DNA of 39,366 nt from Pseudoxanthomonas sp. (lineage in GTDB: Bacteria; Pseudomonadota; Gammaproteobacteria; Xanthomonadales; Xanthomonadaceae): assembly GCF_024710765.1 (NCBI RefSeq), contig NZ_JANJUE010000090.1, positions 1 through 39,366 of the forward strand. The letters run 5' to 3'. The first letter of the stretch is position 1; every line of letters begins with the position of its first letter. Both the position numbers and the translations under genes were made by a program. Below, in pieces: positions 10,066-33,675 of the stretch. The notes beneath the pieces were generated by a model. That model made no database searches, had not been told where the DNA came from, and worked only from the letters and a program-made list of their open reading frames with translations.

Positions 10066-10221
10066 CGGTTCGGTTCTCAATGCGGAAAGAAGAGCGAAAG
10101 CGATTCGTTGTCGGCCTTCGCCGGGTGAGGTCGCCACGGTGGCGGCGTCACGGAATGCGCGGTGGCGGGAACCGGCGCATCGCGCGGAAGAGTCCGATCG
10201 CGATGCGCCGTTGCTTCATTG

Positions 10222-22200: not shown

Positions 22201-23775
22201 CATGGCGATGCGCACGCCGACCGCGCCGGACACGTCGATGCGCGCGCCGTCGGCCACCGTGGACCGGCCCGCCGCTTCCACCAGCACCTGGCCGCCGGTG
22301 GCGAGGGTCAGCGACTGGCCCTGGAAATCGACGTCGCCGCCGCTGCTGATCCGGATCAGCGACTGGTCGCGGCGATGGGTGACGTTGCCGTCCGGCTTGT
22401 CGGTGTCGCGCACCAGGGTTTCGCGCTGCACGTCCAGCGCGGTGGTCGCGCTTTCGTCCAGCACCACCGCGGTGACACTGTCCTTGTCCAGGGTGATGCG
22501 GCCGTCGGTATTACCGGCCGCATTGGTCAGGTGGACGGTGCCGCGCGCGTGCACGGACGTGGTCGCCACCACCGTACCCTGCTGGCGCACGTCGTCGCCG
22601 ATCAGGCTGATGTCGCCGGTGGCTGCCTGGATCAGGCCGGTGTTGCCGACCAACCCGGTCGCCGTGTTGCCGCCCGCCGGCAGGCGCAGCGTGGAGACCA
22701 GGTTTCCGCGCGTGGTCGAGGCCTGGTTGCCATCGGTATCCATGCCCTTGCGGATGACGAAGGCATCGCCGGCGGCGAGCGTGGTCTGGCCGTTGGCCGT
22801 GGTGATCTGGCCGTGGTTCTGGACCTGCTGGCCCAGCAGCAGTACATAGCCACCGCCCTCGGTCACCGACTTGGGCACGTGGGTGGTGATCTGCGCGCCC
22901 TGCTCGACGGTGATGCCGGCGGTTGCCGCCCCATAGCGGAAACTGCTGGCCGTGGAAGCCAGATCGTTGGCGAAGGTGGGAATGAAGTCCTTGCCCTGCG
23001 CCTGGCTGTAGAGACCGTTGCGGAACTGCGCATCGTTGATGTTGACGGCCGACGCGGCGAGATTCTTGACGTTGACCTGGCTGGTGCCGTTGAACACCAC
23101 GCCGTTGCGGTTGATCAGGAACACGGTGCCGTCGGCCTTGATCTGGCCCTGGATCTGCGATGGCCGCGCGTTCGGGTCGTTGATGCGGTTGAGCACCGAC
23201 CAGGCCGCGCCCTGCTTGAAGTCGACCGTGGTGTTGCGGCCGACGTTGAAGGTTTCCCAGTTGAGGATGGCCTTGTCGGCGGTCTGCTCGATGGTGACGG
23301 TGGTCTTGCCGTCGGCCACCTGCTGGGTCGGATCCTTGGCGTTGTGCCAGCCGCGGGTGAGCGCATCCTGGTCGATCTTCAGGCCGCCTTCGCCCAGTCC
23401 ATCGGGGATGTTCGGCGCGCGCAGGCGCGCTGCGTCGCGCGCGGCCTGCTGCATGCGCTGCTGCATGGCGATGGCCTGCGCGGCGGTGCCCAGGTTTTCC
23501 AGCGAGGTCTTGAGTTTCTCGCGCGCCTCGCGGTTCTGCTGTTCGGGGCGCGGCAGGTTGCTCGGCTGTCCGTTGGGCAGCCGTCCGGATTGGCTGGCGC
23601 TCTGCTGGTTGGCGCCCTTGGCGGCGAACCAGGCCGGGCTGAAGGCCTGCTGCGCGCCGGCGGTTCCGATCATGCCGCCGGCAACCAGCAATGCGGTGAT
23701 CGCATGGGCCAACGGCTTGATGCCCAGGCCATCGGCCGTGGAAGGAGTGCCCGTGCGTTGCGCCTGCTTCACCAT
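10222..23775 (-). CDS. Giant TpsA filamentous-haemagglutinin-family exoprotein (DUF3739 type)
   Basis: A secreted beta-helix adhesin of about 4,517 residues. The start is ATG 23775; an in-frame GTG at 23784 adds three residues. A signal segment spans about 20-42 (PLAHAITALLVAGGMIGTAGA). A Gln/Arg/Ala-rich helical insert at about 75-120 separates it from the TPS recognition domain (about 155-300), which holds NWETFNVGRNTTVDF, LINRNGVVFNG and VKNLAASAVNI. The remainder is repeated beta-helix sequence built on GGxVxLxAxxDIxxxGx. Near the C-terminus, DFGGDINLLVPGGRTLIGVD and WSAEGDINAGRGSKT mark the DUF3739 region of this family, followed by a helical tail. No Hint, CdiA-CT or toxin domain is present, and no immunity gene follows. 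Only three cysteines occur (about 2207, 2213, 3096). TpsB lies downstream and the sigma/anti-sigma operon upstream. Role inferred: adhesion, biofilm or contact-dependent surface function. Confidence 0.92.
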   Translation of the reverse strand: MVKQAQRTGTPSTADGLGIKPLAHAITALLVAGGMIGTAGAQQAFSPAWFAAKGANQQSASQSGRLPNGQPSNLPRPEQQNREAREKLKTSLENLGTAAQAIAMQQRMQQAARDAARLRAPNIPDGLGEGGLKIDQDALTRGWHNAKDPTQQVADGKTTVTIEQTADKAILNWETFNVGRNTTVDFKQGAAWSVLNRINDPNARPSQIQGQIKADGTVFLINRNGVVFNGTSQVNVKNLAASAVNINDAQFRNGLYSQAQGKDFIPTFANDLASTASSFRYGAATAGITVEQGAQITTHVPKSVTEGGGYVLLLGQQVQNHGQITTANGQTTLAAGDAFVIRKGMDTDGNQASTTRGNLVSTLRLPAGGNTATGLVGNTGLIQAATGDISLIGDDVRQQGTVVATTSVHARGTVHLTNAAGNTDGRITLDKDSVTAVVLDESATTALDVQRETLVRDTDKPDGNVTHRRDQSLIRISSGGDVDFQGQSLTLATGGQVLVEAAGRSTVADGARIDVSGAVGVRIAMEANNVLINVQGNEQRDASGNRDDKRLNNSNIWLDRRDLVLVPAGTNGYETDRWYTAGGLLEVGGYLGVTGHGIGEWSAQGGTVQFSGGEVVTREGSRINLSGGTLDVQTGRVNQTFLKGADGRLYNASNAPGDLIYTGLYKGFEDRHERWGSQTTSYYYNPLIAPRTRLESGYVVGRDAGKLVVATRGAVLEGDVEGSTFQGDRQQRARDAALESYQQAQTAVARGSTLVIGSHQPVYDKDSGDLRHSPGAVVNTVTIGAAARGAEPQAGRIALDTAWLNRQGLGGLEVYARGGVRVDEALTVSPGGTIALHASQVDVNADLTARSGSIRLGNIVTQRTTSGGGKWLDIAISEVTPEGHLRQVSLADGVTLDARGVWNNQQRDGNDIAGLPFVDGGSVSLRSDGNVILGKDSLIDVSSGATLVVDDHLQGGRGGNVTLAAGMNGGTGVLALDGKVRGYGVKGGGRLDIENGTLISIGGDAPQAIERLPAGETSQLPLRLADDYVIEPGERIPLDFSVTITRVMGGQEVPVRTRPLISEGNPVTLQASWRVPVTVVTADGVYRQAGTVLPAGTVLHMITELDAGFVVPRDVFPDGLPIHSHTATYTAGSIATTAIVVPRGQRIPPGTAWPDAVDVLPFLTLDGDLFQSGFKSYAVQGRDGVIVPAGTDLSVVMPVLDHDRERARQIATGADPADVLTPWLPPLQQDDAAKGRTTLRPGASLSLVAGSIYANGLLDIGKGSRITVDPGQSIRLTANDQITVEGELRAHGGRISILPGESGQGTQRNRPNGQPNARSIWIGDQALLDVSGRAYTGVDAQGRRFGQVLDGGTIEIGARHNLDARDIDAVDAFLVVRAGARLEASGAQATLDLPGLGSTLIPSHGGVIALSASNGLYIDGQLRALAGGAGAAGGTLALNLETPRYREVGRWDYLGNDVDDGVRVPRELLLEQHYGGSGLAADAEAGVAHDSLRYGQARYGVDAIHAGGFDTTSLYVNGLLSFAGDIDLRMRQALHLTASGIGLGVDAARDSRVTLAAPYLRVSGSARRQGDGEMMPNPVFGSRNAGAGAGTLGAPGIAEGSTLRLEADLIDLVGEVGMGANGEIVHNGGTPLKVRRDAFEALQMHSRGDLRLRGAKLFSPGDATLAARQIYGSGSVVVGLRSRVNQWNNLEHYYDPDSRLDIARVGTELPPMPYSVFGAMSFSAATVNQGGVLRAPLGSITLGSADNSGKTGLVNLLPGSITSVSARGLTLPYGGTVDGLVYQYDGADVDFHGIGSEPKVEFQSSAVNAQADATVDLSGGGELTGAAFLSGRGGSTDARLHPLVQMAADGSGFILPGLFTNPVYAIVPGVQAGQAPVGGEQGAGAPALGRQITIGAGVPGLPPGTYTLLPSTYALLPGAFRVEINGLAGTAAPFGNVTAMRNGSWSTAAQLGTANTGVRDALPTQVILTSADTLRSYSQYNETSYAQFAIDSAARDGVPRALLERDAKAISLRLIERSEEGALGAPALRFDATVRATPEAGGHGSLTNLWYARNYEILADGAAPTEGFNGVSVHASELNAIGGARVVIGGRLTSTQRDHTGSQQKANQVGVMGNSTASIVLREGAVLEGTDVFLITSRVDGAITLEQGAGINTLGKGASTLGAEQGYVYSPGANSMLAVSNGVLDLLAPDAASSDGNGAGAIEIGTCAIGKACQGETRLYSEGTIATATDNRFVLGDEVRYGTRNLVLAVGGINVGSETALADAARRGALPAGMTLNQQVLDRLLLGDTRNGAPALQNLALTARESINFYESVILSTFNPATGKSALKQLVLGTPAILGHGDAGDVARIHTDTLVWTGSRLPGGNVVAQGPGTGSGQLVFDARVIDFGHATKSQPDTVRSHDRLALGFAGVSLNASERVTASHKGTLSVYQSQGDWDAASRTFAYHGGNLNIATPLLTGAAGSVNRITAGGDIRVTGSGSATTTPATNASDALGAEIALDSRGGGLSFDGVAWLPSGKLSLSARDEVVLGDAARLDLAGRKLDFFDVSKYSWGGEVVLESRAGDVRQSATAQIDLSARFNRAGRLSAIAQGGTVDLAGRILGASSGHYDAGGTDVPFMAGRIDVHGRRIADFAGLNARLTSDGMTGGRSFRLGEGDLVIGNELKAHEINVSLDRGQITVNGTIDASGEQAGSIRLAARDGVTLTGGAVLDASADVLRRDSYGQVIEAPNRATIEVDSGTGPLRIDSGARMDLRVAGADRGYGTVALNAPRVGGNDITIDARGGIAIEGAKAITVNAFISDDSARPGTDATTDGGSYQVIDQDYLDRLHGQSTIFLNAALGNADLMENRLAGLRGYRDQFHLRPGVQIVSSTDPAINPDGNLHVDGDLDLSGHRYASVNPHSQRTGVRGSGEAGALVIRARGDLEVFGSISDGFDGSRLAAGFDDQGWILTRGRQPHGADVVVPHGGMVTLVAGTVFPSGKVLNYDVRINGMEVAAGTRLPTEVTLAQPMTLARGTVLGGPVFDAAGQLLYAAGTVLADAIVLPVDTRLGAGLRLPVAARLGEMIWPAGVALPAPSRGTGVTLAADLALAKGAFIPCETDVKLPGDVQLVDLRGKDADGNQGRQWTLAPMLAAGSQSWDITLVGGADPEAADRLAVSRERTGGLRLSDNHYGMGMQELPVPGTGSPAVYRWDDAPNPEFVDLVSLFGYSFPIMAGAVITPAEVDELKMLGIIAEDPSELNAWGYGDLAAMVTPATPPDMEFVTLPVREQLASVVRTGTGDLKLVSGDDILTTSLYGIYTAGTPSARLAAADGSDPFNLARGRTAQGTVLGAGGGLFEHLVDGGGQSLYQAWFPEAGGNLLLRARGDIMGDSLGKPTTVIRQDANGYRTMPLTGSASVGNWLWRQGSGSVGDAGGNVATAWWINFGTYVASSRDNSMSQFEIMPRQVAFTGFGTLGGGNLLLETGGDAGMLQGRGDQGYVISRSQGVNLAVASTGRVTASGELVQTGGGDLDIRIGGGLNPDPAQRSFPVGNLLPEANTFPVNNVHRLDLNGSFTNLRGALRMEAGSVGGIELRYGGLDPKESRASDVYTAITSTSGGGPLLVLGDATARIDARGDLVLAGAADGGRVPQFHGGTPYRINDTLRDGGGWNWFSLWTPSTSVDLFAAGGNLTPTLGELDRGDFSDFLATDGNFIYPSIVRAVAASGSLFYGINNNASGVVLAPSPVDTRFVVESAGQLELLARDSIYAGGNGFSMSGADPTRLPSPFNPGFIGLGDNVWYGRRIWHNVSADAVAPSVLFAAGGGGPLGTAQAYPLFSFTPPTASGHVYAGREPARYYAVEGDLVGLQLGGIVYRGLHTGERGKYPSWYDGGGAVAIRAGRDIVNAGTQLGQFDTLGQNYGQMIGSLGWFGTPTTLDPSAPHKPDHIGTGTSRGNLIVHASADDVSVVEAGRDIRYSTFYVAGPGQLELTAGRDVYMADKGELRSIGPVYDITPGDRGSGAGITVMAGVGEHGADWAAFAARYLDPANLADPERPLAEQAGKAVRIYDGSLTLAQWLAREFGYGGDEAGAQAFMVGKQAELDRARDAALAAGGSAGIRNLTREFQRESDLHLVNWLTTRFGGANGLGLHFDAGRMDARAFFAALPPEQQRVFLRNAYYNELKAGGREYNQAGGPREGSYLRGREAIATLLPAKDKAGNAIHYQGGLTMFSSAAYYENFGETASARPRPGRSYIREDEWFARGLPSDVPFYKVLDAGIHTDFGGDINLLVPGGRTLIGVDGGFTPAEGSGVLTQGDGDINIYSRGSLLLGQSRIFTTFGGNILAWSAEGDINAGRGSKTTIVYTPQRRAYDAIGNVSLSPTTPNTGAGIATLNPIAEVPPGDVDLIAPLGTIDAGEAGIRVSGNVNLAALRVVNAENIQVQGEAKGIPVVASVNVSALSNASSAATSAVQAAQDMVKRQTARNRPSVISVQVIGFGADAGSAAPRRDDDGYDAHSVVQVSMGEPANESRSRPASSNPRQGRH

Positions 23776-24022
23776 TGCTCTCACCCGTGGAATGTCGTTC
23801 GCTGGATGCGCTTGCCGCTTCTTCCCATGCCCGTGTCGAACACGGTGGGATGCGTCGTGCGCGTTACGATGGGTAAGACCGCCGCCGGTGACGACGACTG
23901 AACCGTTGCAACAAAAAATTCATCTGCCTGATGGCGAATCGCTGTTCGACGGCGGATTTCATGTTTCCGTCATCTCCAGGTGCTAGGCAGGACGTGGCTG
24001 ACGCGTCTTGCGTCGCGCGTGT
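23776..24022 (-). promoter_or_regulatory. 247-bp gap between fecR-like gene and tpsA; presumed tpsA promoter region
   Basis: No gene is visible. It is the only sizeable gap between the signalling operon and the tpsA-porin genes, so it is the natural site for the promoter recognised by the adjacent ECF sigma factor. The minus strand contains an A/T patch (GAATTTTTTGTTGCAAC, about 23922-23906) and GGAAACATGAAATCC upstream of it. I could not fit a convincing -35/-10 pair, so the exact promoter is not called. The tpsA start has GGTGAG a few bases ahead. Confidence 0.4.
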
Positions 24023-25063
24023 TCAACCCAGCAGGGTCAGCCCGCCGGGCATCGTCGTGACGCGTGCGCCGTAGACGTCATGGACCAGGTCGAGAAAGGT
24101 GTCGGGCTGCGCGGTGGGAATGCGCGCCTGCACTTTCCGACGCCCCAGCTCCGCGCGCGTGATCAGGATCCGCCCGGGTCGATAGCGATTGATCTCGTCG
24201 ACCACGCGCGCAAGCGGCTCGTTGTCGAACACCAGGAAGCCGTGCCGCCAGGCGTCGACCCGCGCCGGGTCCACCGGCGCCACCGATGCGATCCGGGCCT
24301 GCGCCAGGCGCGCCTGCCACGCCGGTTCCAGCACCACCGTGCGTCCTCCCTGCTCCACCCGCGCCTGCCCGGCCAGACAGGTGATCAGGCGATCCTCGGC
24401 GACGCAGCGCAGGTTGACGCGCGATCCCGGGACCAGCGTGACCACGCCCGCGTCCAGCCATACGCGCAGCGGCGATGCCGCGGCCACCGGTACGCTGAAC
24501 TGGGCTTCGCCCTGCACCAGTTCCAGCGAAGGCGAACCGGCGCGGTGATTCCGGTCAAGCGCGGTGCGCGCGCCCAGTTCCACCTTGACGCCGTCGATGT
24601 CCAGTGCGCGTTGCTCGCCCACCGCGGTGCGATAGTCGGCGGCGACCTCCTCCCACTCCGGCCACAGCCCGAGCGGGGAGCGCGCGATCAGCCAGCCGGC
24701 GGACGCGGCAACCGCGCCGCCGACGAAGGCGCGCCGTCCTAGGTTGATCGCGCGCGGCCGGCGTGAGGCCCGCGATGCGCCGGGAGGTTCGGCAAGCCCG
24801 GCCGGCGACGGTCGCGACGGCAGTGCCCGCAGGGGCGGCGCGGCGGCGGCACTTTCGGCCGCGACGGCCGCCGCCGGTTCTATCGCCGCCCAGAGCCGGC
24901 GCGCCTCGGCGAACGCGCGCGCATGCAGCGGTTCCGCACGCCAGCGACGGAACGCGTCGGCATCCAACGTCGTCGCCTGCCCCGAATGCAGGCGCAGCAG
25001 CCAGTCACGCGCCTGGGCGCGTGCCCTGGATGCCTGCGGAGATTCGTCCGGCCTCATATCCAT
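24023..25063 (-). CDS. FecR/VreR-type anti-sigma (sigma regulator) protein
   Basis: A 346-residue FecR-family regulator. The cytoplasmic N-terminal part (about 12-60, QARDWLLRLHSGQ, RRWRAEPLHARAFAEARRLW) is the sigma-binding domain. A low-complexity Ala/Pro linker follows, then one membrane segment at about 111-127 (RRAFVGGAVAASAGWLIA). The periplasmic FecR domain (about 145-260) has YRTAVGEQRALDI, GVKVELGARTAL, LELVQGEAQFSV and ARVEQGGRTVVLEP. The C-terminal receptor-facing domain (about 270-346) has GFLVFDNEPLARVVDEINRY. These proteins bind the STN domain of a partner and release or activate the sigma factor. The ATG overlaps the sigma-factor stop codon (TGATG), so the two are translated together. 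Twin arginines before the hydrophobic stretch resemble a Tat signal, as reported for E. coli FecR. Confidence 0.88.
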   Translation of the reverse strand: MDMRPDESPQASRARAQARDWLLRLHSGQATTLDADAFRRWRAEPLHARAFAEARRLWAAIEPAAAVAAESAAAAPPLRALPSRPSPAGLAEPPGASRASRRPRAINLGRRAFVGGAVAASAGWLIARSPLGLWPEWEEVAADYRTAVGEQRALDIDGVKVELGARTALDRNHRAGSPSLELVQGEAQFSVPVAAASPLRVWLDAGVVTLVPGSRVNLRCVAEDRLITCLAGQARVEQGGRTVVLEPAWQARLAQARIASVAPVDPARVDAWRHGFLVFDNEPLARVVDEINRYRPGRILITRAELGRRKVQARIPTAQPDTFLDLVHDVYGARVTTMPGGLTLLG

Positions 25064-25599
25064 CACGACTGTTTTCCTGCGCCGGGACCGAACCGCTGCA
25101 CCACCCGGCGATCCAGGCGGGTGGCGCAGTGCTGCAACGCCTTCTTCAGATCCTTGCCGATCATCCGCAGCGAAACGCCATGGCGGCGCGCGATCGCGTC
25201 CAGCGGCTCCTGTTCGACCCGCGCGGCCAGCAGGATGGCGCGCTGGCGGCGCGGCAGTTCCCGCAGCGCCTCGGCCAGCACCGCGATCTCCGCCTGTCCC
25301 AGCGCCACGCTGGCCGGATCCTGGTCGTCGACCACCTCGTCCATCAGAGCTTCGATCTCCATGCCGGTAAGGACGCGCGCCTGCGCCACCCGCTGATCGG
25401 TGGCAGCATTGACCGCCATGCGGAACAGGTACGCCACCGGATTGCGGTCCGGCTGCGCGTTCTCCCGCATGCGCTCCACCCGCAGCCAGGTTTCCTGCAA
25501 CGCCTCCAACGCCAGATCGTCCGAGCCCAGGCGCCGGCGCAGCCGCTTGCGGAATTCCTCGTAGTGATCGAGCAGCAAGGTTCGCAGGCCGGCGCTCAT
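25063..25599 (-). CDS. ECF sigma factor, FecI/VreI type
   Basis: A 178-residue RNA polymerase sigma factor. Region 2 spans about 8-75 (LLLDHYEEFRKRLRRRLGS, ALEALQETWLRVERM, NPVAYLFRMAVNAATDQR). Region 4 spans about 108-162 (ALRELPRRQRAILLAARVEQ, LDAIARRHGVSLRMIGKDLK). It lacks region 3, as ECF factors do. The ATG overlaps the upstream stop codon as ATGA and the stop overlaps the fecR start, so STN protein, sigma and anti-sigma are a coupled unit. Expected role: activating tpsA and downstream genes when the surface signal is present. The order STN-sigma-FecR is that of vreA-vreI-vreR in P. aeruginosa. Confidence 0.9.
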   Translation of the reverse strand: MSAGLRTLLLDHYEEFRKRLRRRLGSDDLALEALQETWLRVERMRENAQPDRNPVAYLFRMAVNAATDQRVAQARVLTGMEIEALMDEVVDDQDPASVALGQAEIAVLAEALRELPRRQRAILLAARVEQEPLDAIARRHGVSLRMIGKDLKKALQHCATRLDRRVVQRFGPGAGKQS

Positions 25600-26327
25600 C
25601 GTCCACCTCCAACGCACGGCGGCGTCGAATCCGCGGTTTCCGGCAGCAGGGTCAGGGTGATGGGCTGCGGCAGATCCTCCGGCAAGCCCGGCAGCGACCG
25701 CCCCGCCACGCGCGCAAGGATGGCGCGATCGCGCAAGGCATCGCCGCTGGACGCCTGCAGTTCCGCCTCGCCGATGCGGCCCCGCGCGTCCACGCGGAAC
25801 CGGATCATGGCGCGATAGCCGCCCGGACGCGTCAATGGATCGGCGCACAAGGCGTCCTCCAACCCGCGTTGGAGCATCCTCGCGGCGCGCTGTCGGGAAC
25901 GATCGCCGCCCCTGCGGGGTACTTCATTCACGGGCGGCGCGGGCATGGCGGAATCCACCGGCACCATCATCAGGGTGAAGGCGTCATCGCCCACGAAACG
26001 CGGCGCCAATCCGGTACCCGCCAGCATCCGCCGCAACGCGTCCTCGTCACTGAAGCGCCCGCGCACCGCCGTCGAACGCAGTCCGGCGAGCGTGGGCGCA
26101 TCGACCAGCACCGCCAATCCGGTCAGCTGGCCATACGCCTGCAAGGCCCGCTCCAGCGGCTGCGCGGGCAGATCGAACCAGCGCCGCGAATCCGAATCTC
26201 CGGCGTGGACGGCGAACGGCGACAGCAACGCCGCCAACAGCATCGCGAACTTCGGCAGCCTTCGATGCCGGTTCGCCTCGCGGCGCGGTTCCAGAGGGGC
26301 AGCGGTCGTCCCGCAAATGACTGTCAT
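25596..26327 (-). CDS. Periplasmic STN-domain protein with TonB-like C-terminal domain (VreA-like signal receptor)
   Basis: About 243 residues. A signal peptide ends near 42 (FAMLLAALLSPFAVHA). The STN (secretin/TonB short N-terminal) domain spans about 49-120 (WFDLPAQPLERALQAYGQLT, LAVLVDAPTLAGLRSTAVRG, DALRRMLAGTGLAPRF). The C-terminal part, about 152-230, resembles a TonB C-terminal domain (YRAMIRFRVDARGRIGEAEL, then ALRDRAILARVAGRSLPGLP). In ordinary surface signalling the STN domain belongs to a TonB-dependent receptor; here there is no barrel, as in VreA of P. aeruginosa. It should contact the FecR-like protein in the periplasm and pass on a signal. The start is uncertain: ATG 26243 would give a shorter signal peptide with a better ribosome site. 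It ends in ATGA overlap with the sigma gene. Confidence 0.78.
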   Translation of the reverse strand: MTVICGTTAAPLEPRREANRHRRLPKFAMLLAALLSPFAVHAGDSDSRRWFDLPAQPLERALQAYGQLTGLAVLVDAPTLAGLRSTAVRGRFSDEDALRRMLAGTGLAPRFVGDDAFTLMMVPVDSAMPAPPVNEVPRRGGDRSRQRAARMLQRGLEDALCADPLTRPGGYRAMIRFRVDARGRIGEAELQASSGDALRDRAILARVAGRSLPGLPEDLPQPITLTLLPETADSTPPCVGGGR

Positions 26328-26408
26328 CAAACTGCAGGCGGAACGCGCCAGTATCGATACGCCGGGCACGGCACACTATTCGGCCATCGTTGCAGTCCGG
26401 TGACATCC

Positions 26409-27497: not shown

Positions 27498-29153
27498 ATG
27501 TTGATTGACTATCGACACGCTTCCGCCCCCGATGACTTCGACGCCCATCTGTGCATCGTGGGCGCCGGTCCGGCGGGGATCGCGATCGCACGCCAGTTCC
27601 TGGGCACGGCGCTGCGCGTCTGCCTGCTGGAGGGCGGCGGGCTCTCGGGCGATGCCGACAACCAGTCGCTCTATGCCGGTGAATCGATCGGCGTCCCGGC
27701 ACTGGATCCCGCCGCCAGCCGCCTGCGCGCCTTCGGCGGGAGCACCAACGTCTGGGGAGGCGGCTGCATACCGCTGGGGCGCATGGATCTGGCGCCGCGC
27801 GACTGGGTGCCCTACAGCGGCTGGCCGATCTCCTATGCGGAACTGGAGCCCTACTACGCGCGCGCCCGCGATCTGTTCGCGATCGACGAGCACGAATTCG
27901 AGGCCGGTGGTTTCCTGACGCCGCCGGCACGGCAGCCCCCTGCGTTCGATCCGCGGCACCTGGTCAACCGGAATTTCGTGCTGAGCCCGGTGTTCTTCGG
28001 CTCCACCTATCGTGCGGAACTGGAGCGCGCGCCGAACATCCAGGTGGTCCTGCACGCCAACGTGCTGGAGCTGCAGGCCGACGCGCAGGGAGAACACGTG
28101 CAGCGGGCGCGCATCGGAACCTTGCAGGGCCGGCGTGGCCACGTTCGCGCGCATCGCTATGTGCTGGCCTGCGGCGGCATCGAGAACGCGCGCCTGCTGC
28201 TGCTTTCGAACTCGTCGGTACCGCAGGGCCTCGGCAATCGCCAGGACCTGGTGGGCCGCTATTTCATGGATCATCCGCGCGGGCGACTGGGCACCCTGCA
28301 GGCACGCGCGGTCACCCCGATCACCCGTCCCTATGACCGTTCTGGCGGCAAGGGCAGCGCGCCCGCCTTCCCGGAGCTGTGCCTGTCCGATGACGCGATG
28401 CGCGCGCATCGGCTGCTGGCCGGGCGCGTACGGCCGGTCGCCGTGGAGGGACCGGTGCCGCGTGGCATACACGCCGCGCGACGGCTGCGCTCGGCGCTGC
28501 GCAGGCCGCGCCCCGATGAAGGCCGTTCGCTGGAAGGACAGATGTCGCAGGCCCTGAGCTTCAACGCGCCGTCGGGGGATTCCACGCCCGACCGCGAGAA
28601 CATCGCCCGGCTCGCGCTGGCCCTGGCGCCCGGCGTCGGTGATCTGGCGCGCGGCGTGCTCAACAAGCTCGCCGACCGTCCGGTGGTGCGCCCGGATCAT
28701 GTCGATGTGATCGGCTACTTCGAGCAGGCGCCCAATCCGGAAAGCCGCGTGCACCTGGGCGAAGAACGGGACGCGCTGGGGCAGCGGCGCGTCTGCATCA
28801 ATTGGCGGCTCACGTCGCTGGACTGGCACACCTACCGGACCGCCGCGCACCTGTTCGGCGGCGAACTGTCGCGTGCAGGCGGCGGCGGAAGCTTCCAGGT
28901 CGAAGCCTGGCTGCGGGATGGCGGCACGCCGCAATTGCAGGGCACCGCCCACCACATGGGGACCACGCGGATGGCCGATGACCCCACCGAAGGCGTGGTC
29001 GACCGCAACCTGCGTGTCCATGGCATGGACAACCTGCATGTCGCGGGCAGCTCGGTGTTTCCGACCGGCGGCTGGGCATTCCCCACCTTCACCCTGGTCG
29101 CCCTCAGCATGCGCCTGGCCGAGCACCTGCGTGACTGCCTGTACCTGCTCTAG
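27498..29153 (+). CDS. GMC-family FAD-dependent oxidoreductase with altered active-site Asn
   Basis: A 551-residue flavoprotein. The N-terminal dinucleotide-binding motif CIVGAGPAGIAIARQF with acidic LLEGGG partner (about 19-48) binds FAD. FGGSTNVWGGGC near 80 is the flavin-contact loop of this family. ACGGIENARLLLLS (about 225) is also typical. The C-terminal GMC domain has HHMGTTRM (about 490), supplying the catalytic His, and VDRNLRVHGMDNLHVAGSSV. The family normally has Asn or His in GG-x-A-N-P-T; here it reads GGWAFPTFT, with Phe in that place. The protein has no signal peptide or membrane helix. Family members oxidise alcohols, sugars or sterols; the substrate here is unknown. It is convergent with the barrel gene 29184-30533 and is not in an obvious operon. 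Confidence 0.88.
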   Translation: MLIDYRHASAPDDFDAHLCIVGAGPAGIAIARQFLGTALRVCLLEGGGLSGDADNQSLYAGESIGVPALDPAASRLRAFGGSTNVWGGGCIPLGRMDLAPRDWVPYSGWPISYAELEPYYARARDLFAIDEHEFEAGGFLTPPARQPPAFDPRHLVNRNFVLSPVFFGSTYRAELERAPNIQVVLHANVLELQADAQGEHVQRARIGTLQGRRGHVRAHRYVLACGGIENARLLLLSNSSVPQGLGNRQDLVGRYFMDHPRGRLGTLQARAVTPITRPYDRSGGKGSAPAFPELCLSDDAMRAHRLLAGRVRPVAVEGPVPRGIHAARRLRSALRRPRPDEGRSLEGQMSQALSFNAPSGDSTPDRENIARLALALAPGVGDLARGVLNKLADRPVVRPDHVDVIGYFEQAPNPESRVHLGEERDALGQRRVCINWRLTSLDWHTYRTAAHLFGGELSRAGGGGSFQVEAWLRDGGTPQLQGTAHHMGTTRMADDPTEGVVDRNLRVHGMDNLHVAGSSVFPTGGWAFPTFTLVALSMRLAEHLRDCLYLL

Positions 29154-29183: not shown

Positions 29184-30533
29184 TCAGAAGGTGATCGGCA
29201 CCCGCGCGGTGAACGTCACGTCAGGCGTATCGCGGGTGAGCCCGGCGCCCAGCGCCACGTTGAGCGAGACACGATCGTTGAAACGGTAGGTACCGCCCAG
29301 CAGCAAGGTCGCCAGGGTCACCCGCACCGCACCGGCTACGTCCTGCCCGTTCTGCTGCGTCTTGCCGACCACGTTCATGTCGTAGCCGATGCTGATGGCG
29401 GCCTTCTCGTTCAGCGCCAGGCCCATGCCCAGGTTGAAGCCGATGATGTCGCCGGCCTCGATGTCGCCCAGCGACTCGCGCTTGCCGTCCACCAGCAGGC
29501 GCGACACGTTGCGGCGCTTGAAGTTGTGCAGGTAGCTCAGGCTGCCGAAGAACACCACCGGGTCGGAGGGATACAGCCAGGTCACGCCGGGCTGCAACGC
29601 CTCGAATCCGGATCCGGTCGGCAGGTCCAGCGGCAGGCCGGTGCCGGTGGTATTGGCGACGCAGCGGGTCACGCAGTCGGTGACCACGTCGAACAGGTCT
29701 TTGCCGGTCCGGCTCTTGTAGCGCAGCCAGCCGATGTAGAACGCCTTGTCGGGCCCGCCCTGGTTGATCTGGTAGCGCGCGGTCAGCTCGACATCGCCGA
29801 TGCCGTTGCCACTGGCGTTGAACACGCGGTCCTGCGCGGAACCGGTGAAGATCTCGCGGCTGACCGTATCGCCGTTGATGTACACGTACGGCAGCTTGGC
29901 CTCCAGTTCGAAGCGCCGGTTGATGCCATAGCGTCCGGTCAGCGTGGCGACTGCGGTGGTGGTCTTGACCTGGCGCACATCGATCAGGCCGATCAGGATG
30001 GCGGGGATCACGGTGTAACCGACCAGCGCGACGCGATCGTTCGCCGAGTAGCCGTACTGCAGGGAGGGTTCCAGCACGAGCTTCCCGGGCGGCGTCAACA
30101 CGCCGGGCTGGTCGAAAATCTGCGCCACTTCCGGCGGGCGCGAATCCGATTCAGGCGCCTGCCCCACCGGTTGCGCGGCAGGTCGCGCCGGCGGCGTGGC
30201 CTGCGTCGGCGCGCTCTGCGCGGCGAGTACCGGCGCCTGGCCGAGCACCGGCATCACCGCCGGCGCGTGTGCGCCGCGCGCGCGGGCGTTGGCCAGGACC
30301 TCCTCGTTGAGTGCGGACTGCAACCGCGACAGCGCCTGTTGTTGCTGCTCCAGTGATTGCCGGGTGTATTCGAGTTGGCGGGTCTGCTCGTTGATCTGCC
30401 GCTGCAGGGCGTCCAGGCGATCCTCGTCGGCGGCGGATACAGGCGACGCCTGCTGGGCCCACGCGGGGTTCGCGGACAACAGGCCGGCGGCGAGCGGCAA
30501 CGGCAGCAGGCGCGAGAGCGACATCCTTTTCAT
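29184..30533 (-). CDS. Outer-membrane beta-barrel protein with N-terminal coiled coil (FapF-like export channel)
   Basis: A 449-residue outer-membrane protein. Residues 1-27 are a signal peptide (LLPLPLAAGLLSANPAWAQ). About 36-80 form a coiled coil rich in Gln and Leu (DEDRLDALQRQINEQTRQLE, LEQQQQALSRLQSALNEEV). An Ala/Pro linker spans about 85-135. The barrel follows from about 140 (LVLEPSLQYGYSANDRVALV, YGINRRFELEAKLPYVYING, VVFFGSLSYLHNFKRRNVS) and ends VTFTARVPITF with terminal Phe. This is the architecture of FapF, the trimeric channel that exports Fap amyloid subunits in Pseudomonas. It is the last gene of the five-gene minus-strand operon, 27 bases after the previous one, with CGGAG ten bases before ATG. 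Similarity to FapF is by architecture and context, not by alignment. Confidence 0.78.
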   Translation of the reverse strand: MKRMSLSRLLPLPLAAGLLSANPAWAQQASPVSAADEDRLDALQRQINEQTRQLEYTRQSLEQQQQALSRLQSALNEEVLANARARGAHAPAVMPVLGQAPVLAAQSAPTQATPPARPAAQPVGQAPESDSRPPEVAQIFDQPGVLTPPGKLVLEPSLQYGYSANDRVALVGYTVIPAILIGLIDVRQVKTTTAVATLTGRYGINRRFELEAKLPYVYINGDTVSREIFTGSAQDRVFNASGNGIGDVELTARYQINQGGPDKAFYIGWLRYKSRTGKDLFDVVTDCVTRCVANTTGTGLPLDLPTGSGFEALQPGVTWLYPSDPVVFFGSLSYLHNFKRRNVSRLLVDGKRESLGDIEAGDIIGFNLGMGLALNEKAAISIGYDMNVVGKTQQNGQDVAGAVRVTLATLLLGGTYRFNDRVSLNVALGAGLTRDTPDVTFTARVPITF

Positions 30534-30560
30534 CGGGTTGTCTCCGTGGGAAAGAGCGGA

Positions 30561-31070
30561 TCAACGGGTACCGGCCGAACCGATCAGCGCATCCTGCAGG
30601 GCGCCGCCGGCATTGAGTCCCTGGAAACCACCCAGCACGTGGCTGTCAACTTCCAGGCGGGTGATGGTGGTGATGTTCTGGTTGTCGAGCGTGTTCTGGA
30701 TCACCACGCCCCCGGGCAACCTCACCGGATCGAAGCGGTTGCCGTCGCCGCGCTGGACCACGATGCCCCGGTTGAACTCGCCAAGCGCGCGCGCCTCTTC
30801 CGCGGTCAGCCGCGACAGATCCGCGACCCGCACCGATGTGCTCGCAGCCAGTTCGCCGTTGATGAACACCATCCGTTCGATGCCGAACGACAGCATCGCG
30901 CCGGACGGCAACTGGAAGCCGCCGCGCATCGTGTCCAGCCGGGCCGGATCGATCGGCGTCCATTCCGCCCCCAGGCCGTCTCCATCATCACCGGAAGCCG
31001 GCAGCGGGATGGCGGCAGCGGTGACCAGGCTGAAGAACGCGCCCAGGCAGATTGTCATTTGCCGGTTCAT
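30561..31070 (-). CDS. Secreted protein with double-glycine motif, possible amyloid-like minor component (FapE-like position)
   Basis: A 169-residue exported protein. A signal peptide spans about 1-27 (MTICLGAFFSLVTAAAIPLPASG). At 41-51 is DPARLDTMRGG, followed by FQLPSGAMLSFGIERMVFIN. Leu at -7, Met at -4 and Gly-Gly fit a C39 peptidase site, with cleavage expected after Gly51. The C-terminal third has VVIQNTLDNQNITTITRLEV, an Asn/Gln/Thr-rich strand motif also seen in the two other secreted proteins of this operon. The ATG follows the peptidase stop codon by one base (TGACATG), so expression is coupled. I recognise the RGGF...SFGI.R..F.NGEL shape from proteobacterial proteins next to C39 peptidases, but no function is assigned. 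By position it matches fapE, though it has no CxxC. Confidence 0.72.
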   Translation of the reverse strand: MNRQMTICLGAFFSLVTAAAIPLPASGDDGDGLGAEWTPIDPARLDTMRGGFQLPSGAMLSFGIERMVFINGELAASTSVRVADLSRLTAEEARALGEFNRGIVVQRGDGNRFDPVRLPGGVVIQNTLDNQNITTITRLEVDSHVLGGFQGLNAGGALQDALIGSAGTR

Positions 31071-31071
31071 G

Positions 31072-31764
31072 TCAGATATCCCCCGGGCCGCGTCGCGGCA
31101 CCGCGATGTTGCGCAGGCCATCGCGATGCAGGCCGACATCCAGCGGCGCGGGCGGCGCGGTGCGCCAGTCCCGTGGCTGGTTGAAACGCGCCTGGCCGCG
31201 ACGGTTGTGGATGACGAACAGCACCCGGTTGTCCCATAGCGCCTCGAAGCGCGACTTCGGCATCGCGCGGGTACCGCGCGCCGGATCTCCCAATAACACC
31301 CGGCCGTTCTTGAGTCCCTTGACCACCACGAAATGGCGGTAGCCACGGTCGTTGAGCAGCACGATCGCCGGCACGCCCTCTTCCTGCAGTTTTTCCAGCG
31401 GCAGTTCGAAGCCGTCGGCTTCGAAGCCCTGGGATTGCAGGTAGCGGCGCATGTCCAGCAGCGAAAAGCCTTCCTTGCGGATCCGTGCCTGATCGCCGTA
31501 GGTGTACATCCGCACGAACACGTCCTGCTCGCTGACCGGATGCCCGTACTGGAACGTCAACAGGGTCGCGGTCGCCGCCGATCCGCAACTGAAGTCGAAC
31601 TGCTGCGGGATGGTGGTGCGGAAACGGGCTTCCTTCAGGCTGGTCACCCGCACCTGGTACGCGCCGCTGGCGGGCACCCGCAGATCCATGTCCGCCGCGG
31701 CGGCGTTCATGGTGGCGCACGCCAGCATGATCGTTCCCGCCACGGCGGCACGGGCGGATCTCAT
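31072..31764 (-). CDS. Periplasmic C39-family cysteine peptidase (FapD-like)
   Basis: A 230-residue protein. A signal peptide spans about 1-24 (AAVAGTIMLACATMNAAAA). The C39 core holds QQFDFSCGSAATATLL (oxyanion Gln near 55, nucleophile Cys60), GYRHFVVVKGL (His144) and VLLGDPARG (Asp160), a complete catalytic set. There is no ABC-transporter part, so it acts alone after Sec export, like FapD. The start overlaps the previous stop codon as ATGA and the next gene follows by one base. Expected role: processing secreted subunits of this operon in the periplasm, probably after the Gly-Gly motifs in its two neighbours. The C-terminal tail (about 190-230) beyond the peptidase fold is Arg/Pro-rich and of unknown use. 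Confidence 0.85.
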   Translation of the reverse strand: MRSARAAVAGTIMLACATMNAAAADMDLRVPASGAYQVRVTSLKEARFRTTIPQQFDFSCGSAATATLLTFQYGHPVSEQDVFVRMYTYGDQARIRKEGFSLLDMRRYLQSQGFEADGFELPLEKLQEEGVPAIVLLNDRGYRHFVVVKGLKNGRVLLGDPARGTRAMPKSRFEALWDNRVLFVIHNRRGQARFNQPRDWRTAPPAPLDVGLHRDGLRNIAVPRRGPGDI

Positions 31765-32237
31765 CGTGCCGGATCCGCGAAGTTCACGGTCACCACCATC
31801 GCGTTCTGGATGAGCACGTTGGTGCCGGTGTTCTGGATGACCGTGTTGATGCCGTTGGCATTGTCGAAGGCGCCCTGGTTGATGGTGTTGCTGCCGCTGA
31901 TGATGCGGTCGGCGGTGTTGCCATCGACGGTGCCGTCGACATCGATGATCACGGCGCTGCCGTGGTCATCCTCGCCGCCGCGCATGCCGGCCAGCCGCGC
32001 CACGTCCACCGGCGCGCCGATTTCGAGCACGCTGCGTTCGCGGACCTGCAACCAGCCTTGCGGCACGTCGGCCCGAATCGGCACCGACAGGGCCGACTCC
32101 GCGCCGGCGCCCGTCATGGGCGCCGGTGATGCCGCCGGCTCGCCCGCGAGGGCCACGCCCGCACCGGCGCACCACAACGCGAACACCCTCCAGGACGCGG
32201 CCTGGAAATGCCGCGCGAAACGATAACGGGGATGCAT
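31761..32237 (-). CDS. Secreted protein with double-glycine motif and Asn-rich amyloid-like C-terminus
   Basis: A 158-residue exported protein. The ATG at 32237 is preferred over 32243 because GGGAG lies seven bases upstream. The signal peptide ends near 31 (RVFALWCAGAGVALA). At 78-88 is DVARLAGMRGG, nearly identical to the motif in the 30561-31070 product and expected to be cut by the C39 peptidase. The C-terminal 45 residues (SGSNTINQGAFDNANGI, then NTVIQNTGTNVLIQNAMVV) are Asn-rich alternating strands typical of amyloid or beta-helical subunits. The stop codon overlaps the peptidase start (ATGA). By position and composition it may be a minor subunit or nucleator, comparable with FapA/FapB, though sequence identity is not evident. 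Confidence 0.72.
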   Translation of the reverse strand: MHPRYRFARHFQAASWRVFALWCAGAGVALAGEPAASPAPMTGAGAESALSVPIRADVPQGWLQVRERSVLEIGAPVDVARLAGMRGGEDDHGSAVIIDVDGTVDGNTADRIISGSNTINQGAFDNANGINTVIQNTGTNVLIQNAMVVTVNFADPAR

Positions 32238-32294
32238 GGTCATTCTCCCTTGCCATGCGTTCCGTCCTGGCACGTCGCGCCACGCGCCCCCTGT

Positions 32295-32322
32295 CGATCC
32301 CGCCGCGGGGGCGGCGGGATCG
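32295..32322 (-). terminator. Very strong hairpin downstream of the Gly-rich gene (partial terminator or mRNA stabiliser)
   Basis: Perfect 12-bp stem CGATCCCGCCGC/GCGGCGGGATCG with a four-base loop, in the 139-base gap after the first operon gene. No T-run follows. Such a hairpin can protect the upstream message and reduce read-through, giving more of the first product than of the later ones. Confidence 0.5.
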
Positions 32323-32338
32323 TCCTGCGCACGGCGCG

Positions 32339-32360
32339 CCGGATCGATGCAGCGATCCGG
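32339..32360 (-). repeat. Second stem-loop in the same gap
   Basis: Perfect 8-bp inverted repeat CCGGATCG/CGATCCGG with a 6-base loop, 16 bases past the Gly-rich gene stop codon and 16 bases before the 12-bp hairpin. Together they form a tandem-hairpin transcript end. Confidence 0.45.
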
Positions 32361-32376
32361 TGTGCCCGGGGAGCGC

Positions 32377-33675
32377 TTACGGACCTACGGTCAGGTTGGC
32401 CTGCACGGTGATGCCCTGCTGGATCAGCGACGCGAAGCCGCTGTTCTGCGCAGCCACCATCACACCGGCGGCCGACTGGCCGACGCTGCTCATGGTGTTG
32501 GACATGTTGAACGTGCCCGCGTCGTTGGCGACGGAACCACCCGCGCCACCGGCACCCCCCATCGCGCCGTTGCCGACGCCACCGTTGCCGACGCCGCCAT
32601 TGCCGTCGCCGCCCACGCCGCCTTCCGCACCGACCGCGCCCATCGCGCCGTCACCGGCGGTGGCGTCGCCATTGCTGGCGGTCGAGGAAGCGTCGCCGTT
32701 GGTGGCATCGCCGTTGGTCGCCGAGCCACCTGCGCCGCCATCACCCGCGGTCGCGGTCAGGCTGCCGCCCGCACCGCCGGTCGCGGTGCCGTCGCCGCCG
32801 GTACCGGTGGCCGAGCCACCCGTGCCCGCGCCCGCGGTCGCGGTACTGGAGCTGCCCGTCGCGCTCGCGCCGCCGGACGTGCCGTCGCCGCCGGTCGCGG
32901 TGCTGGTGCCGCCGGTGGCGTCGCCCGCGCCACGTTCACGCACGCGTCCACTGTTGGCATCCGCATTGCCACCCGCCGCACCGTCGGCCGCGATCGCGTC
33001 GCCGCTGCCGCTGCCGGCGTCGCCGCCCCAGCCGCCGCTGGCGCCACCGCCCCAGCCACCGGCCGCACCGGCGTCGCCACCGCGGCTGCCGCGATTGTGG
33101 TCGGCGCGTCCGCCATTGCCGCCATCGCCGGCGACCGCATCACCGATCGATGCGCCGCCGTTGCTGACATCGCCCGCGGTGGCGCTGCCATTGATCGCGC
33201 TGCCGCCATCGCCGCCGTTGCCGCCACCGCCGCCGTTGCCGCCACCGCCACCGGTGCCTTCGCCACCGTAGCCGTCGCCACCGCGCCCGGTGCCGCCGCG
33301 TCCGCCGTTGCCGCCATTGGCATCGCCCCAGTTCTTGGCGACATTGCCGATGTCATGCACGGTCACGCCGCTGACCGAACCGATGAGCTTGGTTTCGGCC
33401 ACCGCCTTGCTGTGGTTGAAGGCGTTGGAGAACGTGGCGGTCGCGGTGCCACCGTTGTTCGCCGCCGCGGTGCCATAGCCGTCGGCATAGGCGACGCCGT
33501 CGTTGTCGCGATTGTCACCGTCGTGGGTACTGCTGTCGGTCGCATCGAAATCCACGGCGACGAGCGTATCGGCCCCAGGTCCGTTTTCCGTGTTGGTTGC
33601 CTGTGCGAAAGCCTGTCCCGTCAGACCAAGTCCCAGTAACACCGCAGATGCAATGAGAGTCTTACGCATGCACAT
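32377..33675 (-). CDS. Glycine-rich secreted repeat protein, candidate major fibre subunit
   Basis: A 432-residue protein. The ATG follows AGGAG by seven bases; the signal peptide spans 1-25 (LIASAVLLGLGLTGQAFAQ). An N-terminal part (26-115) has TATFSNAFNHSKAVAETKLI and SVSGVTVHDIGNV. About 119-383 is low-complexity Gly/Ala/Asp/Asn/Thr sequence (GGNGG, GDGGAGG, ATNGDAT units) without cysteine. The last 46 residues (FNMSNTMSSVGQSAAGVMV, AAQNSGFASLIQQGITVQA) form an Asn/Gln-rich module that lines up with the end of the next gene's product. It heads the operon with its own promoter region and is followed by strong hairpins, as expected for the most abundant product. The candidate role, a fibre or matrix subunit like FapC, is inferred from context only. 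Long open frames on the opposite strand are composition artefacts. Confidence 0.75.
   Translation of the reverse strand: MCMRKTLIASAVLLGLGLTGQAFAQATNTENGPGADTLVAVDFDATDSSTHDGDNRDNDGVAYADGYGTAAANNGGTATATFSNAFNHSKAVAETKLIGSVSGVTVHDIGNVAKNWGDANGGNGGRGGTGRGGDGYGGEGTGGGGGNGGGGGNGGDGGSAINGSATAGDVSNGGASIGDAVAGDGGNGGRADHNRGSRGGDAGAAGGWGGGASGGWGGDAGSGSGDAIAADGAAGGNADANSGRVRERGAGDATGGTSTATGGDGTSGGASATGSSSTATAGAGTGGSATGTGGDGTATGGAGGSLTATAGDGGAGGSATNGDATNGDASSTASNGDATAGDGAMGAVGAEGGVGGDGNGGVGNGGVGNGAMGGAGGAGGSVANDAGTFNMSNTMSSVGQSAAGVMVAAQNSGFASLIQQGITVQANLTVGP

What the first reader, a model, noticed from the sequence alone, without database searches (positions are those of the whole stretch)
30918..32006. 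Matching double-glycine cleavage motifs in both neighbours of the C39 peptidase
DPARLDTMRGG (residues 41-51, product of 30561-31070) and DVARLAGMRGG (78-88, product of 31761-32237) have Leu at -7, Met at -4 and Gly-Gly at -2/-1, with hydrophobic residues at -12. This is the consensus of C39 double-glycine leaders. Here both substrates and peptidase carry Sec signals, so cleavage would be periplasmic and would release mature C-terminal chains. The gene between them encodes the peptidase with a full Gln/Cys/His/Asp set.
Basis: partly seen in the sequence, partly recalled or inferred. Interest (0 to 1): 0.8.

Follow-up and report, generated by a model that had tools for sequence, protein, structure and literature searches.

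The report
Double-glycine cleavage tags beside periplasmic peptidase
In a Pseudoxanthomonas-like bacterium, two secreted proteins encoded on either side of a secreted protein-cutting enzyme carry the same conserved cutting tag, which points to the so far unknown targets of the enzyme that helps build Fap-type amyloid fibres.

Summary
The five genes (29184-33675, minus strand) form a Fap-like amyloid secretion operon: glycine-rich subunit, GA, FapD-type C39, GB, FapF-type barrel. Peptidase and barrel match NCBIfam FapD and FapF far below the curated cut-offs, so this is Fap-like, not Fap proper. Across 156 loci, the downstream family (137 rows) and upstream family (123 rows) keep a hydrophobic -12, Leu -7 and mostly Gly-Gly at -2/-1, as in known C39 leaders; Arg -3 is conserved too, Met -4 is not. 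FapE-position proteins of the 20 classical-Fap-like loci have Gly-Arg/Lys instead. GA, GB and this C39 co-occur strongly in the same 31 of 100 related genomes. Best reading: both neighbours are exported by Sec and then cut by the periplasmic peptidase at the motif. Cleavage itself is inferred. If true, it gives a concrete site for the long-open question of FapD's substrate.

The parts
32377..33675 (-). Glycine/asparagine-rich Sec-exported subunit (432 aa), putative major fibre subunit; no L...RGG motif
   Evidence: ORF; 0 families in Pfam and NCBIfam; C-terminal module shared with GA across loci (hhalign E 3.8e-8)
31761..32237 (-). GA: Sec-exported 158-aa protein with leader motif and C-terminal QN-rich module, putative minor subunit / substrate 1
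31974..32006 (-). DVARLAGMRGG, predicted C39 recognition and cleavage motif in GA (L82, R86, G87, G88)
31764..31973 (-). Predicted mature GA (70 aa) released after G88
   Evidence: residues after the motif 63-70 in 121 GA rows
31072..31764 (-). FapD-type C39 peptidase (230 aa) with Sec-type N-terminus; Q54, C60, H144, D160
   Evidence: PF03412 E 7.3e-21; NF058616 FapD 140.1 bits, cut-off 330
31585..31587 (-). Codon of nucleophile Cys60
30561..31070 (-). GB: Sec-exported 169-aa FapE-position protein, putative substrate 2
30918..30950 (-). DPARLDTMRGG, predicted C39 recognition and cleavage motif in GB (L45, R49, G50, G51)
   Evidence: predicted short helix 42-49 after a low-confidence stretch without helix or strand
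30564..30917 (-). Predicted mature GB (118 aa) released after G51
29184..30533 (-). FapF-type outer-membrane barrel with a heptad-like N-terminal region (449 aa), putative exporter of the subunits
   Evidence: NF058560 FapF 150 bits, cut-off 700
30270..30296 (-). LANARARGA in the FapF linker: possible weaker third recognition site (L...R[AG])
   Evidence: 84 of 109 FapF of window-type loci vs 22.4 expected by shuffling; 0 of 19 in the classical-Fap-like group; coordinates

Best explanation
The operon is a Fap-like amyloid secretion system. All five proteins go through Sec. In the periplasm the C39 peptidase binds the short helix carrying hydrophobic -12, Leu -7 and a mostly hydrophobic -4 of GA and GB, as known C39 enzymes bind double-glycine leaders, and cuts after Gly-Gly. 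This frees a nearly constant 63-70-residue GA module and a GB domain for passage through, or gating of, the FapF-type barrel. Shown from sequence: motif, conservation, intact peptidase, gene neighbourhood, co-occurrence. Inferred: binding, cleavage, exact bond, export and role in fibre assembly.
For: Motif columns: GB (137 rows) -12 V/L/I/A/M 137, -7 L 133 or M 4, -2 G 137, -1 G 117; GA (123 rows) -12 V/L/I/M/F/A 117, -7 L 123, -2 G 115 or A 8, -1 G 107 (distinct rows 130 and 114). In GB the columns -3, -2, -7 rank 2, 3, 4 of 152 by conservation. These match positions whose mutation stopped or impaired cleavage in LahT150 (-12, -7, -4), with -3 tolerant (PMC6363468, sections 8-9). LahT150 and PCAT1 lead the PDB sequence and fold matches of the peptidase. 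GB model: no helix or strand at 20-41 (low confidence), helix 42-49 at the motif, strands from residue 60. Length after the motif is steadier than before it: CV 0.03 vs 0.29 (GA), 0.22 vs 0.86 (GB). The same 31 of 100 genomes hold strong C39, GA and GB matches. Background rate of L...RGG 6 of 1119 other Sec-like ORFs. Glycine-rich subunits: 2 of 108 have L...RG[GARK]. Published: FapD Cys38 is needed for secretion, FapE is the only Fap protein with complete loss of its N-terminal peptides in MS, target unclear (PMC5557850 passages).
Against: In the 20 classical-Fap-like loci the second Gly is Arg or Lys, unusual for C39; GA has pairs other than Gly-Gly in 21 of 123 rows. -4 is charged in 8 of 123 GA and 2 of 137 GB rows and ranks low in conservation (48 of 152; 69 of 113). 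GA and GB are paralogues, so a shared motif could be ancestral. No cleavage data exist. Of 156 loci, 19 lack a detected GB and 33 a detected GA. Iterated profiles partly recruited distant rows through the motif itself. In named plasmid records some neighbours have only variants or none: AGK and AGR upstream in Polymorphobacter and Croceicoccus, MIGK in Acidithiobacillus, none found in Indioceanicola.
Confidence: 0.75

Rival explanations
1. The motif is a docking signal: the peptidase holds GA and GB (chaperone or gatekeeper, like the inactive C39-like domains of HlyB-type transporters) but does not cut there.
For: Second Gly is replaced by Arg/Lys in 20 of 137 GB rows and by other residues in 16 of 123 GA rows, while Leu -7 and Gly/Ala -2 persist.
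Against: Catalytic Cys and Gln 156 of 156, His and Asp 155 of 156, unlike degenerate C39-like domains; Cys38Ala of Pseudomonas FapD abolishes secretion (PMC5557850, passages).
Confidence: 0.12
2. The peptidase cuts at this motif but at another bond, for example after the first Gly (Arg-Gly|x), because Leu-x3-Arg-Gly is the more constant core and the last position varies.
For: -3 Arg and -2 Gly are more conserved than -1 in GB and GA; FapE-position proteins of classical-Fap-like loci read mostly [LM]RG[RK][YF].
Against: Spacing -12/-7/-4 to Gly-Gly is that of canonical leaders, which LahT150 also cuts after GA and GS, i.e. with -2 Gly fixed and -1 variable (PMC6363468).
Confidence: 0.1
3. The motif is a structural element inherited from a common ancestor of GA and GB and has nothing to do with the peptidase.
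For: GA and GB are homologous.
Against: It sits outside the confidently folded part of the GB model, stays while the pro-sequence before it diverges (mean pairwise identity 0.29-0.32), and fits C39 leader positions; in 100 relatives strong GA and GB matches occur only beside the peptidase (one marginal GB match, E 3.2e-4, in a genome without it; only part of the candidates was scored).
Confidence: 0.03

Closest known systems
Fap system of Pseudomonas (FapA-F; FapD periplasmic C39, FapE, FapF barrel)
   Same: Sec-exported C39 peptidase followed by a small secreted protein and a barrel of the FapF family; subunit genes upstream; the FapE-position protein shares the motif region (hhalign E 1.9e-5, probability 77.6%, 36 columns)
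   Different: C39 and barrel below the FapD/FapF equivalog cut-offs, no FapB/FapC/FapE model hit in the window; Gly-Gly instead of Gly-Arg/Lys; extra motif-bearing protein GA upstream; glycine-rich subunit without a FapC match
C39 domains of peptidase-containing ABC transporters (LahT, PCAT1, ComA)
   Same: Fold and catalytic residues; leader rules -12, -7, -4, GG
   Different: Free-standing, Sec-type N-terminus, periplasmic by inference; substrates carry a Sec signal plus the leader; conserved Arg at -3; no ABC transporter fused
Fil putative pilus system of Acinetobacter (FilB C39, FilC barrel)
   Same: FilB and FilC models match the peptidase (1e-37) and barrel (3.7e-9), below cut-off
   Different: Different secreted partners; among the ORFs shown for the one Fil locus looked at (L222) no N-terminal motif of this kind; FilA itself was not among the ORFs shown, so it was not checked

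Membership tests
Peptidase family C39 (PF03412) | Domain match above curated cut-off | tested here: met
   74.8 bits, cut-off 22
Peptidase family C39 (PF03412) | Gln/Cys/His/Asp catalytic set | tested here: met
   Q54, C60, H144, D160
Peptidase family C39 (PF03412) | Cuts after a double glycine | not testable with these tools
   needs an assay
Double-glycine leader (C39 substrate) | Hydrophobic -12, Leu/Met -7, Gly-Gly/Ala/Ser at -2/-1 | tested here: met
   Met in both window proteins; GB 117 of 137, GA 101 of 123 rows meet it (Ala-Gly also counted)
Double-glycine leader (C39 substrate) | Hydrophobic -4 | tested here: inconclusive
   Met in both window proteins; M/L/I/V/F in 98 of 137 GB and 75 of 123 GA rows
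Fap system | FapD equivalog NF058616 above cut-off | tested here: not met
   140.1 of 330 bits
Fap system | FapF equivalog NF058560 above cut-off | tested here: not met
   150 of 700 bits
Fap system | FapB/FapC and FapE model hits | tested here: not met
   0 NCBIfam families for the glycine-rich subunit, GA and GB
Fap system | Gene order subunit - FapD - FapE - FapF | tested here: met
   Order subunit-GA-C39-GB-FapF in 30 of 30 near-relative loci L031, L038-L066; GA is an extra gene between subunit and C39
Fap system | Forms secreted amyloid | not testable with these tools
   needs an assay

The most novel reading that the evidence does not exclude
Periplasmic C39 peptidases paired with FapF-type barrels form a widespread Sec-dependent double-glycine export route: substrates carry a Sec signal followed by a second, C39-type leader, and FapE of all Fap systems is one of them. 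Systems without FapE use other Sec proteins with leaders of the LSDADMDGVTAG type.
Probability: 0.5. Interest if true: 0.82.

Novelty: new variant of a known kind. Interest (0 to 1): 0.68.

Why it matters
FapD has been shown to need its catalytic cysteine for amyloid secretion, but its substrate was called unclear in 2017 and undetermined in 2018; a 2025 review says it is thought to process FapE and FapF (passages). A conserved, position-specific motif in the FapE-position protein and in a second neighbour gives an exact site to mutate and sequence, and links two fields: bacteriocin-type leader processing and biofilm amyloid export.

Tried and rejected
Chance match: rejected by conservation. 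Met -4 as part of the consensus: rejected. Glycine-rich subunit as a third carrier: rejected, 2 of 108 have L...RG[GARK]. A first, too strict pattern for that subunit found it in only 3 of 123 loci and was replaced (104 of 123). A Pseudomonas FapE could not be obtained: no genome above the FapD or FapE cut-off (0 of 369; 0 of 1; 0 of 4), and none among the rows shown of the plasmid search (20 of 440 records shown); Aeromonas caviae FapE-position protein (LAHLRGR) had to stand in. Similarity of the C-terminal modules to FapC repeats stayed weak (GA E 3.8e-4, probability 36%; glycine-rich subunit E 0.12, probability 0.5%). The GB model has no fold match at E 0.001 and no PDB sequence match. Residues of the peptidase that split with GG versus GR/GK (95, 98, 116, 117, 165, 186) were found, with a different charge at leader -8, but they follow one clade split and do not explain Arg/Lys at -1.

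Full report
Observation. The window holds five adjacent minus-strand genes: glycine-rich subunit (33675-32377), GA (32237-31761), C39 peptidase (31764-31072), GB (31070-30561) and a barrel (30533-29184). GA and the peptidase gene overlap by four bases. The motifs DVARLAGMRGG and DPARLDTMRGG are at the stated places. In shuffled mature sequences the pattern L..M.GG appears with P 0.0019 (GA) and 0.0076 (GB), a looser pattern with 0.12 and 0.24. Of 184 window ORFs of at least 60 aa, two carry L..[LIVMAT]RGG, namely these.

What the operon is. The peptidase matches PF03412 (7.3e-21) and, below the curated cut-offs, NCBIfam FapD (6.4e-41) and FilB (1e-37); the barrel matches FapF (8.7e-44), also below cut-off; GA, GB and the subunit match no NCBIfam family. 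It is therefore Fap-like but fails the Fap equivalog tests.

Distribution. The peptidase was found in 35 of 100 related genomes; 31 of these at 55% identity or more. GB (profile A3) was found in 32 of 100 (31 at E 1.2e-47 or better; one marginal at 3.2e-4 in G067, which has no peptidase match) and GA (profile A4) in 31 of 100. The 31 strong genomes are the same three times, the matches lying side by side. In some searches only part of the first-look candidates of many genomes was scored. In 30 of 30 near loci (L031, L038-L066) all five genes are present in the same order; in L039 and L062 the subunit gene runs off the contig. The window's nearest named relative there is a Pseudoxanthomonas (93%).

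Motif. 156 loci were examined (window, L031-L066, L097-L136 without L124, L137-L216). A GB-family protein was found next to the peptidase in 137 and a GA-family protein in 123. The 19 without GB are the 12 loci L125-L136 and seven others (L148, L149, L152, L169, L186, L198, L201). The search profiles were iterated, so in the distant loci the motif itself helped recruit members. GB: -12 V85 L26 I19 A6 M1; -7 L133 M4; -4 M65 L19 A19 V8 I6 T6 and others; -3 R136 T1; -2 G137; -1 G117 R15 K5; +1 F109 Y18. GA: -7 L123; -4 L46 M20 Y10 Q9 H8 and others; -3 R100 S17; -2 G115 A8; -1 G107, then K6 R3 and others. Removing near-identical rows leaves 130 and 114 with the same picture. The 20 GR/GK rows are the loci L032-L037 and L097-L110, which lack GA and which I call classical-Fap-like: four of four downstream proteins tested from this group match NCBIfam FapE (70.8-113.9 bits, below the cut-off of 250), and of two subunits tested one reaches the FapC cut-off (195.3 of 195) and one falls short (185.8). 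By Jensen-Shannon conservation the GB columns -3, -2, -7 and -1 rank 2, 3, 4 and 7 of 152, -12 ranks 20 and -4 48; in GA -7 ranks 9, -2 13, -3 19, -1 37, -12 42 and -4 69 of 113. L...RGG within the first 130 residues occurs in 48 of 74 GB, 64 of 95 GA, 11 of 96 FapF and 6 of 1119 other ORFs that passed the crude signal rule. Nine further named plasmid-collection records were looked at. Photobacterium has M-type versions on both sides (LTEAFMTHSRGG, LTDDEMSSLRGG), Polymorphobacter ITDYELATMRGG downstream and the variant VSDAELGEVAGK upstream, a Vibrio plasmid VSLDIMNESRGG upstream, Cupriavidus metallidurans LDDVRGG upstream with no clear downstream motif, Aeromonas caviae LAHLRGR downstream, Acidithiobacillus LAKMIGK downstream, Croceicoccus the variant VSEDALQATAGR upstream; none was seen in Indioceanicola, nor among the ORFs shown for Acinetobacter.

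Fit to C39 biochemistry. In LahT150 the leader's -4, -7 and -12 side chains sit in hydrophobic pockets and -4 to -11 forms a short helix; charged residues at -4 or -7 block or strongly impair cleavage, -3 accepts Tyr, Phe, Lys and Glu, and GG, GA and GS are cut (PMC6363468, sections 8 and 9 read). Arg at -3 is thus compatible. The profile of 16 such peptidases finds LahT150 first among PDB sequences (3.7e-14). The window peptidase's AlphaFold2 model (pLDDT 86.5) has PCAT1, LahT150 and ComA peptidase domains among its best fold matches, together with papain-like toxin domains. The GB model (pLDDT 76.7, so moderate) shows a signal helix, a low-confidence stretch without helix or strand, a short helix at the motif (42-49) and strands from residue 60. 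GA has 63-70 residues after the motif in 121 rows. Length varies less after the motif than before it (CV 0.03 against 0.29 in GA, 0.22 against 0.86 in GB), and mean pairwise identity is 0.29 and 0.32 in the pro-segment, 0.50 and 0.40 in the mature part. These are the marks of a cleaved leader.

Relation of the parts. GA and GB are distant homologues (probability 96.5%); GA and the glycine-rich subunit share a C-terminal QN-rich module (E 3.8e-8). GB aligns to FapE-position proteins over 36 columns round the motif (E 1.9e-5, probability 77.6%). The FapF linker of window-type systems often has L...R[AG] (84 of 109 versus 22.4 expected; some of these lie inside the coiled coil; 0 of 19 in the classical-Fap-like group), which recalls the published idea that FapD also cuts FapF.

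Literature. FapD was shown to need its cysteine, acts in the periplasm and has an unclear target; [quoted passage not shown] PMC6173800 (passages) says the substrate is yet to be determined; PMC12822426 (passages) says FapD is thought to process FapE and FapF. I saw no description of this motif or of GA in the listings of searches or in the passages I opened; the library is open-access only and does not hold most subscription papers.

Judgement. The sequence case that both neighbours are substrates is strong (0.75). The exact bond, the meaning of Gly-Arg/Lys in FapE-position proteins of classical-Fap-like loci and any role in fibres remain open.

Noticed in passing
L127, L129, L134, L136 (C39 plus FapF-type barrel, no FapE found): Small Sec-type proteins near the peptidase carry leaders such as LTEAQMDQVSAG, LNEQQLDSIYAG, LSNAQMDGVAAG, LSDADMDGVTAG; seen in 4 of the 12 loci L125-L136, four such genes in L136.
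   Followed up: partly
window 30270-30296 and FapF genes of window-type loci: FapF linker motif L...R[AG] after the coiled coil, sometimes LxxxRGG (15 of 144 FapF), a possible third peptidase site.
   Followed up: partly
C39 residues 98 and 117 versus leader position -8: E98/D117 with mostly Arg, Gln or Thr at -8 in GG systems, R/K98 and R117 with mostly Glu at -8 in GR/GK systems; a possible charge swap, confounded by one clade split.
   Followed up: no
window 8455-23784: Two-partner secretion pair: ShlB/FhaC-type transporter (8455-10137) and a 4520-aa filamentous-haemagglutinin-like exoprotein (10222-23784).
   Followed up: no
window 6607-8409: Fusion of DUF2341, a concanavalin-A/laminin-G-like domain and a MotA/ExbB channel domain in one 600-aa protein.
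   Followed up: no
window 24023-26369: FecR-like gene and a short STN plus TonB-C-terminal protein side by side.
   Followed up: no
window 27498-29153: GMC oxidoreductase gene convergent with the barrel gene, also in L038, L039 and L049.
   Followed up: no
L237 (Vibrio sp. plasmid) and L124: Peptidase genes that look broken beside other Sec-type genes.
   Followed up: no
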